A DNA stretch of 64,000 nt, taken from contig NZ_VLLE01000002.1 of assembly GCF_007830055.1 (NCBI RefSeq), forward strand, positions 693,953 through 757,952, read 5' to 3'. Shown one piece after another: positions 5,404 to 7,425 of this stretch (position 1 is the first letter of the stretch; each line of letters opens with the position of its first letter). The notes under the pieces are model-generated. The model searched no databases and was not told where the DNA came from. It saw nothing but the letters and a program-made list of their open reading frames with translations. The stretch comes from Lacibacter cauensis. GTDB lineage: Bacteria; Bacteroidota; Bacteroidia; Chitinophagales; Chitinophagaceae. A program made the position numbers and the translations under genes.

Positions 5404-5507
5404 AGCAGATAGTTTTCTGTAATTTATACAGAAATTATAAAATGTAAAAGCTGTTAACTGTTGTGTACTCTCATCGGTGAAGTGTGTTGCATCTGCATTG
5501 CAGGAAC

Positions 5508-5541
5508 AAAAAAGAGCATTGACAAATCAATGCTCTTTTTT
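5508..5541 (-). terminator. Terminator behind the 3' tRNA-Pro fragment
   Basis: A 15-bp stem (5508-5522 with 5527-5541) around a 4-nt loop, with A/T runs at both ends. It sits directly at the end of the 3' half-tRNA, suggesting that this fragment was once a complete tRNA gene with its own terminator. Confidence 0.7.
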
Positions 5542-5542
5542 G

Positions 5543-5596
5543 TCGGGACGACTAGATTCGAACTAGCGACCCTCCCGCCTCCTGCGGGATGCGCTA
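5543..5596 (-). pseudogene. 3' half of a tRNA-Pro-like gene
   Basis: The first 29 nt read on the plus strand (5543-5571: acceptor 3' strand, T arm, variable loop) are identical to the matching part of the intact tRNA-Pro at 5646-5719. The anticodon arm is instead a GC-rich hairpin with no T at position 33, and the sequence stops at the 3' side of the D stem. The 5' acceptor strand is absent here, but a matching 5' half lies at 5987-6035. Confidence 0.75.
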
Positions 5597-5610
5597 TCAA
5601 TAGCACAAAT

Positions 5611-5644
5611 AAAAAAGCCTCACATTTCTGTGAAGCTTTTAAAA
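5611..5644 (-). terminator. Terminator of tRNA-Pro
   Basis: On the minus strand, AAAAGCTTCACA, a GAAA loop and TGTGAGGCTTTTTT form a strong hairpin with a T-run starting one nt after the tRNA 3' end. One G-T pair interrupts the stem. Confidence 0.8.
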
Positions 5645-5645
5645 G

Positions 5646-5719
5646 TCGGGACGACTAGATTCGAACTAGCGACCCCTTGCACCCCATGCAAGTGCGCTAC
5701 CGGGCTGCGCTACGTCCCG
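5646..5719 (-). tRNA. tRNA-Pro (GGG)
   Basis: A complete 74-nt cloverleaf: acceptor CGGGACG paired with CGTCCCG, discriminator A, D arm GCGC/GCGC, anticodon stem CTTGC/GCAAG with loop ATGGGGT (anticodon GGG), and T arm CTAG-TTCGAAT-CTAG. CCA is not encoded. Its 5' end lies only 3 nt after the stop codon of the GIY-YIG gene on the same strand, so the two are probably cotranscribed and separated by tRNA processing. Confidence 0.93.
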
Positions 5720-5722
5720 AAC

Positions 5723-5965
5723 TCAAACAAGACCTTGATCCTGTAAGTATCGTTTGATTCCTCTTTTTTTAATTTTCAATTCCAGTTGAGCTGCACTTGA
5801 TCGAGAAGTACATTCAACTATTGTAATTAAAATCCAAGGAACACCTTTCGATGTATAATTACCTTTTCCTGCATTATGCTGATTTAATCTGATACTTACA
5901 TTTTCAGTATAACCAACATAATACTTTTCTAAAGAACTACTAAAGAGAATATATACGTAAAACAT
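5723..5965 (-). CDS. Small GIY-YIG nuclease-domain protein
   Basis: 80 residues, a single GIY-YIG domain of the UPF0213/YhbQ size class. The signature reads YVYIL near residue 4 and YYVGYT near 16; the conserved Arg is in ENVSIRLNQHN and the metal-binding Glu in AQLELKIKKR near residue 60. The domain cuts DNA or nicks structured nucleic acid in characterised members, but the role of these tiny Bacteroidota proteins is unclear. The gene is sandwiched between a 5' tRNA-Pro half 21 nt upstream of its ATG and an intact tRNA-Pro 3 nt after its stop, which suggests a tRNA-targeting mobile or domesticated element. Confidence 0.88.
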   Translation of the reverse strand: MFYVYILFSSSLEKYYVGYTENVSIRLNQHNAGKGNYTSKGVPWILITIVECTSRSSAAQLELKIKKRGIKRYLQDQGLV

Positions 5966-5986
5966 AAACTCTCTATTTTGGTTAGC

Positions 5987-6035
5987 AACCCTCCCGCCTC
6001 AGGCGGGATGCGCTACCGGGCTGCGCTACGTCCCG
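5987..6035 (-). pseudogene. 5' half of a tRNA-Pro-like gene
   Basis: The 29 nt at 6010-6038 are identical to 5694-5722 of the intact tRNA-Pro (5' acceptor strand and D arm plus 3 flanking nt). The anticodon arm is replaced by a 7-bp GC hairpin, TCCCGCC-TGA-GGCGGGA. The sequence then runs into the GIY-YIG leader with no T arm. Together with 5543-5596 it would rebuild one full cloverleaf. Confidence 0.75.
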
Positions 6036-6159
6036 AACAAAAATTGAGAAATCCACCCCTGGATTTCATCGGGGGCTGCAAATGTAAGATTTATATCTAT
6101 TTGGCACAAAATCAATCAAAAAAAACGATCTTAGCGGCGCAATAATTTTCCCCAGGTAC

Positions 6160-7425
6160 ATGACTATTCTTATTCGTCAGGCGCATATTATCGATCCGCT
6201 TTCTCCTTTTCATAAGAGTACACAAGACGTTTTTATTGATAATGGCCGCATCAGCAAAATCGGTACACTCGCTAATCAAGAGGCCGACCAGGTGATTGAA
6301 GCCAACAATCTGCATCTGTCGCCGGGATGGGTAGATGTGTTTGCACATTTTTGCGATCCGGGTTTTGAGTTTAAAGAAACATTGGAAACGGGTATTGCTG
6401 CAGCTGCGGCCGGTGGTTTTACCGAAGTGTTGCTGTTACCGAACACCAACCCGGTTGTAACCGGTAAGTCGCAGGTGGAATACATGGTGCAGAAAGCAAA
6501 ACACAGCATGGTGAGTGTACATCCGCTGGGTGCTGTTACCAAACAAACCGAAGGGAAAGAGTTGGCCGAAATGTACGATATGAAAGCAGCCGGTGCAGCA
6601 GCTTTTACTGATGGATTGCATCCTGTGCAATCGGCAGGTTTGTTGCTCAAAGCTTTGCAATATGTAAAAGCATTTGATGGTACAATTATCCAGATACCCG
6701 ATGATAAAACAATCGGTACGTATGGGTTGATGAACGAAGGCATCATCAGTACAAGACTGGGCTTGCCGGGCAAACCCATTCTTGCAGAAGAAATTCAGGT
6801 AGCCAGAGATATTAAACTGGCACGCTATGCCGAATCGAAGTTGCACTTCACAGGCATTACTTCGCCCAAGAGTATCGATTATATCAATCGTGCAAAACAA
6901 AGCGGTGCAGCAATCAGTTGCTCCGTAACACCTGCGCATCTTTATTTTACCGATGAAGATCTGCAGACGTATGATACGAATCTGAAATTATATCCACCTG
7001 TACGCACAGCTGTTGAACGGAATGCATTACGGGAAGCTGTTTTAAATGGCGGCGTTGATTGTATTACGACCCATCACGAACCACACGAATACGACAGTAA
7101 AATTTGTGAGTTTGAATATGCCAAGCCAGGCATGATTGGTTTGGAAACCTGCTATGGTGTAATGGGCGCTGTGTTTGGCGATGCATTGAGTGCAGAGCGT
7201 TGGGTGGAGCTGGCCAGCAGCAACCCACGTAAATTGATGCAGCTTTCACAACCGGTAATTAAAGAAGGTGAAGTGGCGAATGTAACATTGTTTGAACCTT
7301 TGGCGACATATGTGTTTACAGAAGATGCCATTCGTTCAAAATCGAAAAATTCTGCCTTTGTTGGCAAAGAGTTAAAAGGTAAAGTGATTGGCATCATCAA
7401 TAACAATCAACTAAAACTCAACTAA
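6160..7425 (+). CDS. Dihydroorotase-like protein with a degenerate metal site
   Basis: 421 residues, amidohydrolase fold of the dihydroorotase family, as shown by GLMNEGIISTRLGLPGKP, the AAAAAGGFTEVLLLPNTNP stretch and the overall length. The metal ligands are mostly lost. The N-terminal D-x-H-x-H-x-R signature reads DVFAHFC (residues 59-65), so one His and the Arg are gone; the later His-containing motif reads TIIQIPDD; and the catalytic TDHAPH motif reads THHEPH. It is therefore probably a non-catalytic paralogue or an enzyme with changed activity, not the pyrimidine-pathway PyrC. It heads a tight plus-strand series with DUF4199 and a glycosyltransferase, an order I recognise from related genomes. 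Confidence 0.8.
   Translation: MTILIRQAHIIDPLSPFHKSTQDVFIDNGRISKIGTLANQEADQVIEANNLHLSPGWVDVFAHFCDPGFEFKETLETGIAAAAAGGFTEVLLLPNTNPVVTGKSQVEYMVQKAKHSMVSVHPLGAVTKQTEGKELAEMYDMKAAGAAAFTDGLHPVQSAGLLLKALQYVKAFDGTIIQIPDDKTIGTYGLMNEGIISTRLGLPGKPILAEEIQVARDIKLARYAESKLHFTGITSPKSIDYINRAKQSGAAISCSVTPAHLYFTDEDLQTYDTNLKLYPPVRTAVERNALREAVLNGGVDCITTHHEPHEYDSKICEFEYAKPGMIGLETCYGVMGAVFGDALSAERWVELASSNPRKLMQLSQPVIKEGEVANVTLFEPLATYVFTEDAIRSKSKNSAFVGKELKGKVIGIINNNQLKLN

What the first reader, a model, noticed from the sequence alone, without database searches (positions are those of the whole stretch)
5543..6035. A tRNA-Pro split by a GIY-YIG gene plus an intact tRNA-Pro
Read on the minus strand: the 5' half of a tRNA-Pro-like gene (6035-5987), a GIY-YIG gene (5965-5723), an intact tRNA-Pro GGG (5719-5646) and the 3' half of the broken tRNA (5596-5543). 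The two halves share a 28-nt segment covering the anticodon hairpin, differing at two positions, and joined they give a full cloverleaf with a palindromic anticodon arm lacking T33. This looks like insertion of a nuclease-plus-tRNA unit into the anticodon arm with a target duplication. Each piece also keeps its own terminator. A GIY-YIG element carrying a replacement tRNA is not one I know to be described.
Basis: partly seen in the sequence, partly recalled or inferred. Interest (0 to 1): 0.75.

Follow-up and report, generated by a model that had tools for sequence, protein, structure and literature searches.

The report
tRNA genes hosting tiny nuclease cassettes
In this bacterium a very small DNA-cutting-enzyme gene sits inside a partly duplicated proline tRNA gene that has been kept intact, and nearly all the relatives examined sit beside tRNA genes in a similar way, which suggests a little-known family of genetic passengers that spread and multiply at tRNA genes.

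Summary
In detail: minus strand, a 5' piece of tRNA-Pro, an 80-aa GIY-YIG gene, an intact tRNA-Pro(GGG) and a 3' piece, both pieces bearing a TCCCG...CGGGA hairpin. It is one case of a widespread arrangement not found in the papers searched. Of 145 relatives, 131 have an ARAGORN-called tRNA gene within 500 bp, all on the same strand; by eye 12 of the other 14 have tRNA pieces. In 135 loci, 84 of 87 5' copies lie upstream of the intact tRNA and 93 of 98 3' copies downstream. Break sites recur by tRNA type, more sharply at the 5' edge; hairpins sit at 151 of 185. GIY lineages follow tRNA identity more than host family. At this locus other genus members have one uninterrupted tRNA, scars, or arrays. 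Best reading, inferred: a minimal homing-like nuclease cassette that breaks tRNA genes at a preferred site; repair from hairpin-bearing copies adds copies in tandem while usually leaving one working tRNA. Phage SegB, which makes tandem segB-tRNA repeats (PMC13096335), is the closest known case.

The parts
6079..6086 (-). TACATTTG, a Bacteroidota -7-type promoter element (TAnnTTTG); the only match between 6200 and 5501 on this strand, upstream of the 5' piece and at the place that would serve the tRNA in empty alleles
   Evidence: the promoter consensus is recalled, not from a call
6009..6035 (-). 5' partial copy of tRNA-Pro(GGG), positions 1-27, 100% identical to the intact gene
5992..6008 (-). 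hairpin TCCCGCCTGAGGCGGGA in place of the anticodon arm (positions 28-44)
5983..5991 (-). tRNA-like stretch after the hairpin (tRNA positions from 45 on, one change), end of the 5' partial copy
5723..5965 (-). 80-aa single-domain GIY-YIG nuclease gene; Y5, Y16, R26, E62 invariant in 13 aligned sequences (their catalytic role is recalled)
5645..5719 (-). intact tRNA-Pro(GGG), 3 nt after the GIY stop; no -7 element of its own found; starts 316 bp after the 5' copy
5611..5640 (-). terminator-like hairpin of the intact tRNA (AAAAGCTTCACAGAAATGTGAGGCTTTTTT)
   Evidence: by eye
5573..5589 (-). second hairpin TCCCGCAGGAGGCGGGA, in the 3' partial copy
5542..5596 (-). 3' partial copy of tRNA-Pro: end of the D-arm, hairpin, then tRNA positions 45-75
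5506..5541 (-). terminator-like hairpin after the 3' partial copy
   Evidence: by eye

Best explanation
A minimal, free-standing, homing-like GIY-YIG cassette lives in tRNA genes. The 80-90 aa nuclease breaks DNA within a tRNA gene at a site preferred by its lineage (around the anticodon arm in the Pro, Ala, Lys and Val lineages; the T-arm between G53 and T54 in one mixed lineage). Repair that copies from a neighbouring hairpin-bearing partial copy, or from an incoming one, adds another cassette or partial copy in tandem and usually leaves one working tRNA, with 5' pieces accumulating upstream and 3' pieces downstream of it. The hairpin (mostly TCCCG...CGGGA) goes with the nuclease lineage, marks the junction and probably keeps the copy from being cut again. 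The gene seems to have no promoter of its own: it is read from the tRNA promoter, here as a 5'-piece/GIY/tRNA transcript from which the tRNA is cut. Shown: anatomy, ordering, recurring break sites, link of GIY lineage with tRNA type and hairpin type, empty alleles. Inferred: DNA cutting, the repair route, the role of the hairpin, co-transcription.
For: 131 of 145 relatives have a same-strand ARAGORN tRNA call within 500 bp, 0 opposite, 14 none. In the 135-locus set: median gap 40 bp, 25 anticodons, 14 amino acids. Ordering 84 of 87 and 93 of 98. 5' edges recur by tRNA type (copies, not loci): Ala at 27 in 11 of 12, Lys at 26 in 3 of 3, Val(TAC) at 28-29 in 8 of 9, Asn at 25 in 7 of 9, Pro (four anticodons) at 27 in 15 of 24. 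Hairpin stem of 6 or more at 151 of 185 partial copies against 505 of 5400 random windows. 20 of 135 loci have 2-5 near-full-length GIY matches in tandem. GIY tree, 107 rows: tRNA label 29 changes against 69.3 shuffled (lowest 64); host family 22 against 25.7 (lowest 24). Hairpin type clusters beyond tRNA type: 23 changes against 33.1 in within-type shuffles, 0 of 300 as low. One clade with Met, Pro, Leu, Asp, Val and Lys loci puts its own double hairpin directly before TTCRA of the T-arm in at least one copy at each of 7 loci. Empty, scar, single and arrayed alleles at one locus in one genus. dN 0.021, dS 0.130 against L. luteus. No -7 element in the 70 bp before the tRNA in 24 of 25 GIY-first loci, nor in the gap in 90 of 91 tRNA-first loci. 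SegB parallel: nuclease-dependent tandem segB-tRNA repeats, cleavage inside tRNA genes.
Against: No biochemistry. The intact tRNA beside the cassette keeps the native sequence at the break site and is identical in the window and in three GIY-less genus members, so why it is not cut is unexplained (two scar-bearing genomes, L084 and L086, do have a changed anticodon stem). 3' edges are more scattered than 5' edges (Ala at 45 in 9 of 13, Lys at 44 in 5 of 8, Asn at 36 in 4 of 10, Pro at 45-46 in 10 of 22; Asp and Met spread widely). If the hairpin only destroys a target, its conserved stem is not needed. In part of the loci the hairpin keeps the tRNA's own anticodon loop (mean longest shared stretch 3.95 against 3.12), so it may arise by stem exchange rather than arrive with the cassette. 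No relative was found in phage, plasmid or viral collections with the single queries used, and no recent transfer between distant hosts was shown; host family also clusters on the tree, and old tRNA-specific lineages inherited vertically would give the same pattern. 36 of 135 loci have no partial copy at the threshold used. The hairpin classes were drawn up after seeing the hairpins. The promoter counts have no chance control and the gaps are short.
Confidence: 0.5

Rival explanations
1. Ordinary recombination: tRNA genes are prone to tandem duplication by short homologies, and the GIY gene is a passenger with some housekeeping DNA-repair role (UPF0213/SLX1-like) that happened to be caught in the repeats.
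For: Closest solved relatives are UPF0213 proteins and SLX1. Many partial copies are near-identical to the local tRNA, as in plain duplication.
Against: Same-strand adjacency in 131 of 145 loci over 25 anticodons; recurring 5' edges, hairpins at 151 of 185 breaks, GIY lineages that follow tRNA identity. Chance passengers would not show these.
Confidence: 0.15
2. REP-like system: the hairpin is the mobile unit and the GIY protein its mobilising enzyme, in the way RAYT (TnpA-REP) serves REPs; tRNA genes are the nest of the enzyme gene.
For: Excess of TCCCGN{3,14}CGGGA per Mb rises with GIY copy number (Spearman 0.48, n=195; 0.42, n=100 with one genome per genus, and 0.29 after taking off 3 hairpins per GIY copy), while the reversed control pattern does not (-0.02; 0.09). 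Three GIY-bearing genomes picked for high counts hold 103, 120 and 145 hits of the narrower pattern against 9, 4 and 9 in the control; in the two whose hits were listed (G057, G012) many are one sequence. Hairpin type follows GIY lineage.
Against: Correlation across related genomes is not independent. Some genomes without a GIY match are rich in the hairpin (G004 79 against 9, G170 168 against 36). The listed dispersed copies in G057 differ from the hairpin at the one of its two GIY places that was read (L188). Of 15 of the 57 hits in the window's genome that were read, 11 lie in stop-to-stop frames of 80 codons or more, so part may be coding chance.
Confidence: 0.15
3. tRNA dosage or decoy system: arrays supply extra or decoy tRNA against tRNA-cutting toxins or defences, as amplified tRNA-Tyr does in SegB-driven phage escape.
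For: SegB precedent (PMC13096335). Pieces are probably transcribed from the tRNA promoter (inference).
Against: The multiplied units are mostly partial tRNA copies that lack one end of the tRNA or have the anticodon arm replaced, so little dosage and no ordinary anticodon decoy is gained.
Confidence: 0.07
4. Site-specific integrative element: a cassette carrying one tRNA end plus GIY integrates at the tRNA by a recombinase supplied in trans, regenerating the gene, as integrative elements do at tRNA 3' ends.
For: 64 of 102 tRNA-first loci have a 3' copy downstream of the intact tRNA, and 19 of 33 GIY-first loci a 5' copy upstream. L153 has the 3' end of a tRNA-Asn from position 36, a terminator and GIY without the rest of the tRNA gene (by eye).
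Against: No recombinase gene in the window's unit: the 316 bp hold only the GIY gene and a tRNA piece. Two mirror-image layouts occur and units stack in tandem.
Confidence: 0.1

Closest known systems
SegB of phages T4/T6 (free-standing GIY-YIG homing endonuclease)
   Same: GIY-YIG nuclease gene directly beside tRNA genes: in T4, 5 nt between segB and tRNA-Arg. Cuts inside tRNA genes and drives tandem segB-tRNA repeats, by the authors' account through recombination between the tRNA 5' region and the segB 3' region. Its motif RAWTSGAAC reads GTTCSAWTY on the other strand, that is the tRNA T-arm (my reading), where one lineage here places its insertion.
   Different: 221 aa against 80 aa; no significant match (E 0.52 over 26 residues), only the shared GIY-YIG domain. 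Phage against bacterial chromosome. No hairpin-marked partial tRNA copies in the passages I read; 'palindrom' has 0 occurrences in its main text.
UPF0213 small GIY-YIG proteins
   Same: Single-domain; best solved relatives 1zg2 and 1ywl.
   Different: The Bacillota homologue L027 has no tRNA near it; function of UPF0213 unknown (recalled).
SLX1 structure-selective endonuclease
   Same: Next best solved matches by sequence and by fold; suggests a liking for branched or hairpin DNA without a separate DNA-binding domain (inference).
   Different: Works with SLX4 and has a further domain (recalled); not a mobile gene.
REP / RAYT (TnpA-REP) systems
   Same: Small palindromes around an enzyme gene and, perhaps, dispersed in the genome.
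   Different: RAYT is an HUH enzyme (recalled; listings); here GIY-YIG. Palindromes sit inside tRNA copies.
Integrative elements at tRNA genes
   Same: tRNA kept intact with a displaced piece (recalled for these elements).
   Different: No integrase in the 316-bp unit; tandem stacking; break site in the anticodon arm or T-arm.

Membership tests
GIY-YIG nuclease superfamily | GIY-YIG fold with conserved Tyr, Tyr, Arg, Glu | tested here: met
   PF01541 E 4.9e-16 and 13 of 13 aligned sequences; Y5, Y16, R26, E62 invariant; model pLDDT 93 matching 1zg2 and SLX1
GIY-YIG nuclease superfamily | Nuclease activity | not testable with these tools
   needs purified protein
Homing endonuclease gene | Occupied and empty alleles of one site | tested here: met
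   empty L085, L087, L088; occupied window, L079, L080 at the same dihydroorotase-flanked tRNA
Homing endonuclease gene | Insertion destroys the cleavage site, protecting the carrier | tested here: inconclusive
   the hairpin replaces or splits the break site in partial copies, but an intact native tRNA stays beside the cassette
Homing endonuclease gene | Super-Mendelian spread by break repair | not testable with these tools
   needs crosses or conjugation
SegB family | Sequence homology over the whole SegB protein | tested here: not met
   BLASTP E 0.52 over 26 residues; no PHROG hit at 0.001; only PF01541 shared
SegB family | Association with tRNA genes | tested here: met
   131 of 145 loci
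UPF0213 | Sequence and fold similarity to UPF0213 structures | tested here: met
   1zg2 E 6.1e-14 by profile, Foldseek E 6.7e-4
REP/RAYT | HUH (Y1) transposase | tested here: not met
   only GIY-YIG and the overlapping T5orf172 domain found in the protein
Group I intron with homing endonuclease | Intron RNA that splices | tested here: not met
   at gathering scores Rfam finds only two tRNAs in the window
tRNA-integrating element | Integrase or recombinase in the element | tested here: not met
   the 316-bp unit holds only the GIY ORF and a tRNA piece

The most novel reading that the evidence does not exclude
Bacteroidota and some Patescibacteria carry a whole class of sub-400-bp mobile cassettes made of one 80-aa GIY-YIG gene and a lineage-specific DNA hairpin, which use tRNA genes as landing site, promoter and shield, and whose enzyme also disperses the hairpin through the genome: a REP-type system run by a GIY-YIG nuclease instead of an HUH transposase.
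Probability: 0.2. Interest if true: 0.9.

Novelty: new variant of a known kind. Interest (0 to 1): 0.75.

Why it matters
Free-standing homing-type nucleases that live beside tRNA genes are described for phages (PMC13096335). Here the same logic appears on bacterial chromosomes, with relatives in 111 of 195 sampled genomes of the window's family (E<=0.001) and 156 of 395 sampled genomes of its phylum (E<=1e-6), and with a single-domain protein of 80 aa. If right, it would explain odd tRNA fragments and tandem tRNA-like repeats in these genomes, and it offers a test bed for how a nuclease without a DNA-binding domain picks a tRNA gene, how needed genes survive being used as landing sites, and how hairpins arise at repair junctions.

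Tried and rejected
Group I intron, REP transposase or integrase at the locus: nothing found. Other GIY copies in the window's own genome: none at E<=0.001 with the window protein. Phage and plasmid records: no tblastn match at 1e-5 with the window protein; viral contigs: 86 stretches matched the one peptide pattern, none confirmed. PADLOC gave only partial hits to two candidate-system models, the better at E 3e-5 over 35 residues, not taken as membership.

Only titles and abstract starts of the listed papers were seen; none of these describes tRNA-nested bacterial GIY-YIG cassettes or hairpin-marked tRNA pieces. The one paper opened is PMC13096335 (outline with abstract, section 10, and passages found by terms; not the whole text). 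The library lacks most subscription papers and all preprints.

Resistant tRNA variants as the reason why the carrier survives: not supported, since the window and three empty genus members share the tRNA sequence; two scar alleles (L084, L086) do differ in the anticodon stem, which I did not follow. Host family as the driver of the GIY tree: its label also clusters (22 changes, lower than all 200 shuffles, lowest 24), but less than tRNA identity; one family makes up 81 of 131 rows; the tree has 80 columns and only 13 of 126 inner branches starred. The SegB-type T-arm motif as the general target: only 55 of 135 intact tRNAs carry GTTCSAWTY, so it does not explain most lineages.

Dropped rows: duplicates L001, L005, L070, L071 of the window's own site; loci without an ARAGORN same-strand tRNA within 500 bp, and tRNA calls of unknown or stop type, from the 135-locus counts; GIY pieces under 62 residues or with stops from the tree; tRNA matches overlapping another called tRNA of a different type. 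Within the 145, some nearest tRNA calls were of unknown or stop type (L057, L136, L154). Near-duplicates remain: L022 and L180 have the same protein, as have L007 and L079. Partial-copy counts are copies, so arrays count more than once. Of 14 genus genomes I established the allele at this locus for 10; ten loci were printed, of which L083 missed its match and L106 is another tRNA; G199, G200, G204 and G205 were not settled.

Full report
The observation. Positions 1-27 of a tRNA-Pro are followed by the hairpin TCCCGCCTGAGGCGGGA where the anticodon arm (28-44) should be. Next comes an 80-aa GIY-YIG ORF (PF01541, E 4.9e-16), then 3 nt after its stop an intact tRNA-Pro(GGG), its terminator-like hairpin (by eye), and a second partial copy with its own hairpin and positions 45-75. 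The shared segment has 2 differences in 28 nt, 3 in 33. The window protein finds one such GIY gene in this genome at E<=0.001. Among the places that the locus DNA matches in this genome, two others hold tRNA-Pro genes (CGG and TGG), and GGG is only here.

Alleles at the same locus. Fourteen genomes of the genus were searched, ten loci printed, eleven alleles compared by pattern. The neighbour upstream is a dihydroorotase-like gene (window 6160-7425 +, TIGR00857 333 bits, cut-off 279); the leader beside it was found in all eleven. L085, L087 and L088 have a single uninterrupted tRNA. L084 and L086 have the tRNA plus what looks like a decayed 3' copy; L082 has the tRNA plus a clean hairpin-bearing 3' copy and no GIY. 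L080 has GIY plus four tandem 3' copies. L081 has two units of 5' copy, hairpin and GIY before the contig ends (its first GIY frame has an early stop). L079 and L007 resemble the window. Measured to tRNA position 6, the gene starts 53-55 bp after the -7 element in the three empty alleles; in the window the 5' partial copy starts 56 bp after it and the intact tRNA 316 bp further on. So the intact gene here seems to have lost its promoter to the cassette and presumably depends on read-through; the only TAnnTTTG on this strand between 6200 and 5501 is at 6086.

Relatives. One query finds relatives in 111 of 195 genomes of the family (E<=0.001), 156 of 395 of the phylum (E<=1e-6), and 28 named loci including Patescibacteria. 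In four sets of fetched loci, 131 of 145 have an ARAGORN-called tRNA gene within 500 bp on the same strand, 0 on the opposite strand, 14 none: 27 of 28, 28 of 29, 26 of 28 and 50 of 60. By eye, 12 of the 14 have tRNA pieces beside the GIY gene; L027 (Bacillota) and L192 have none; Rfam found no RNA family in them at gathering scores. Of 28 control loci without GIY, chosen by the hairpin pattern, 1 holds a tRNA. The last set of 60 was taken down the ranking without regard to tRNAs.

Anatomy. In 135 loci with an intact tRNA (25 anticodons and 14 amino acids as called by ARAGORN), 102 have the tRNA first and 33 the GIY gene first. 5' partial copies lie upstream of the intact tRNA in 84 of 87 cases, 3' copies downstream in 93 of 98; eight loci hold the exceptions. 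This is what tandem duplication with one end inside the tRNA gives. That end recurs by tRNA type. 5' edge: Ala at 27 in 11 of 12 copies, Lys at 26 in 3 of 3, Val(TAC) at 28-29 in 8 of 9, Asn at 25 in 7 of 9, Pro at 27 in 15 of 24. The 3' edge is looser: Ala at 45 in 9 of 13, Lys at 44 in 5 of 8, Asn at 36 in 4 of 10, Pro at 45-46 in 10 of 22; Asp and Met are scattered. A hairpin with a stem of at least 6 bp is at 151 of 185 breaks (summed) against 505 of 5400 random 42-nt windows. 20 of 135 loci have two to five near-full-length GIY matches. Loci have 5' copies only (24), 3' only (48), both (27) or neither (36), so the two pieces need not be halves of one broken gene.

Lineages. On a GIY tree of 131 rows (80 columns, weakly resolved) the tRNA label needs 39 changes against 88.5 shuffled, 0 of 200 as low. 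On the 107 rows with a host-family code it needs 29 against 69.3 (lowest 64); the host label needs 22 against 25.7 (lowest 24), so host clusters too, but less. Hairpin class (87 rows, classes drawn up after seeing the hairpins) needs 23 changes against 33.1 when shuffled within tRNA type, 0 of 300 as low. One clade, starred in this quick tree (L009 Met, L047 Pro, L055 Leu, L144 and L145 Asp, L150 Val, L167 Lys), has its own double hairpin (TGCTGAC...GTCAGCA type in most). In at least one copy at each locus it stands directly before TTCRA, between G53 and T54 (some copies in L047 and L144 read GCGA). That sequence is shared by most tRNAs, which would help explain why this clade is so mixed; other clades mix tRNA types too, among them the Patescibacteria rows. 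In 42 TCCCG-type hairpins near the anticodon arm, the interior shares more with the tRNA's own anticodon arm than with others (mean longest stretch 3.95 against 3.12, sd 0.14): clear for Arg, Lys, Leu and one Val, not for the window's two (2 and 3).

Expression. In 24 of 25 GIY-first loci (gap up to 30 bp) no -7 element lies in the 70 bp before the tRNA; 17 of 25 have one within 260 bp upstream of GIY. In tRNA-first loci (gap up to 150 bp) 1 of 91 has a -7 element in the gap, 64 of 91 have one within 300 bp upstream of the tRNA, and 71 of 91 gaps have a T-run. No chance control was run and the gap is short, so this is suggestive only. The gene is under purifying selection (dN 0.021, dS 0.130 against L. 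luteus; 0.22 and 1.49 against G203).

Protein. Single domain; Y5, Y16, R26, E62 invariant among 13 sequences; AlphaFold mean pLDDT 93. Nearest solved structures are UPF0213 and SLX1. SLX1 is structure-selective, which would fit a protein without a DNA-binding domain (inference).

Mechanism. The best reading is a homing-like cassette. The nuclease breaks a tRNA gene at its lineage's preferred site; repair from a hairpin-bearing neighbour or an incoming copy duplicates cassette or piece in tandem, usually leaving one working tRNA at the inner end. The SegB work (PMC13096335; abstract, section 10 and passages read) shows that a GIY-YIG nuclease can do something like this: catalytically active SegB is needed for tandem repeats of tRNA-Tyr and segB, with microhomology between the tRNA 5' end and the segB 3' end. 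SegB's motif RAWTSGAAC reads GTTCSAWTY on the other strand, which is the T-arm (my reading). In T4 segB ends 5 nt from tRNA-Arg, as the GIY gene here ends 3 nt from tRNA-Pro. The proteins are not close kin. Against: the native site remains beside the cassette and is unchanged from empty alleles, and no cutting has been shown.

The hairpin elsewhere. TCCCGN{3,14}CGGGA occurs 57 times in the own genome against 12 for the reversed pattern; of 15 of these read, 11 lie in stop-to-stop frames of 80 codons or more. Over 195 genomes its excess per Mb rises with GIY copy number (Spearman 0.48; control -0.02), also with one genome per genus (0.42, n=100; 0.29 after subtracting 3 per GIY copy; control 0.09). 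Three GIY-bearing genomes picked for high counts have over 100 each. Relatedness is not fully removed, some genomes without a GIY match are rich too, and G057's listed dispersed type differs from that at the one of its GIY places I read, so a REP-like role is a lead, not a result.

Verdict. Real, widespread and, in the searches named under Tried and rejected, not found in print; a new variant of free-standing GIY-YIG homing genes, with hairpin-marked partial tRNA copies as its distinctive feature.

Noticed in passing
G012, G057, G038; own genome: Dispersed hairpins with over 100 pattern hits per genome against 4-9 in the control; in G012 and G057 many are one sequence (TCCCGATAGCTATCGGGA, TCCCGAAGTTTCGGGA). 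Of 15 read, a few sit at the tip of longer hairpins (L195, L201; by eye).
   Followed up: partly
L209, around 1501: A tRNA-Ser(CGA) whose long variable arm seems to be a hairpin of the TCCCGAT...ATCGGGA type, in an otherwise intact tRNA call.
   Followed up: no
L153 (G019), upstream of its GIY gene: A unit starting at tRNA-Asn position 36 with terminator and GIY but no 5' part of a tRNA gene, possibly an insertion outside a tRNA gene (by eye).
   Followed up: no
L084 and L086, same locus as the window: Two genus members with a decayed 3' copy and no GIY at this locus have a changed anticodon stem in the intact tRNA-Pro.
   Followed up: no
window 5461-5658 +: A 65-aa ORF antisense to the 3' partial copy (...RFELATLPPPAGCAINSTNKKA...) is probably a spurious tRNA-antisense frame; I recall such peptides as common false annotations in Bacteroidota.
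   Followed up: no
G489, G384, G434, G055: Tandem GIY arrays of 3-5 listed copies with periods of about 315-380 bp; G489, G434 and G055 are single-contig genomes, so these are unlikely to be assembly artefacts.
   Followed up: partly
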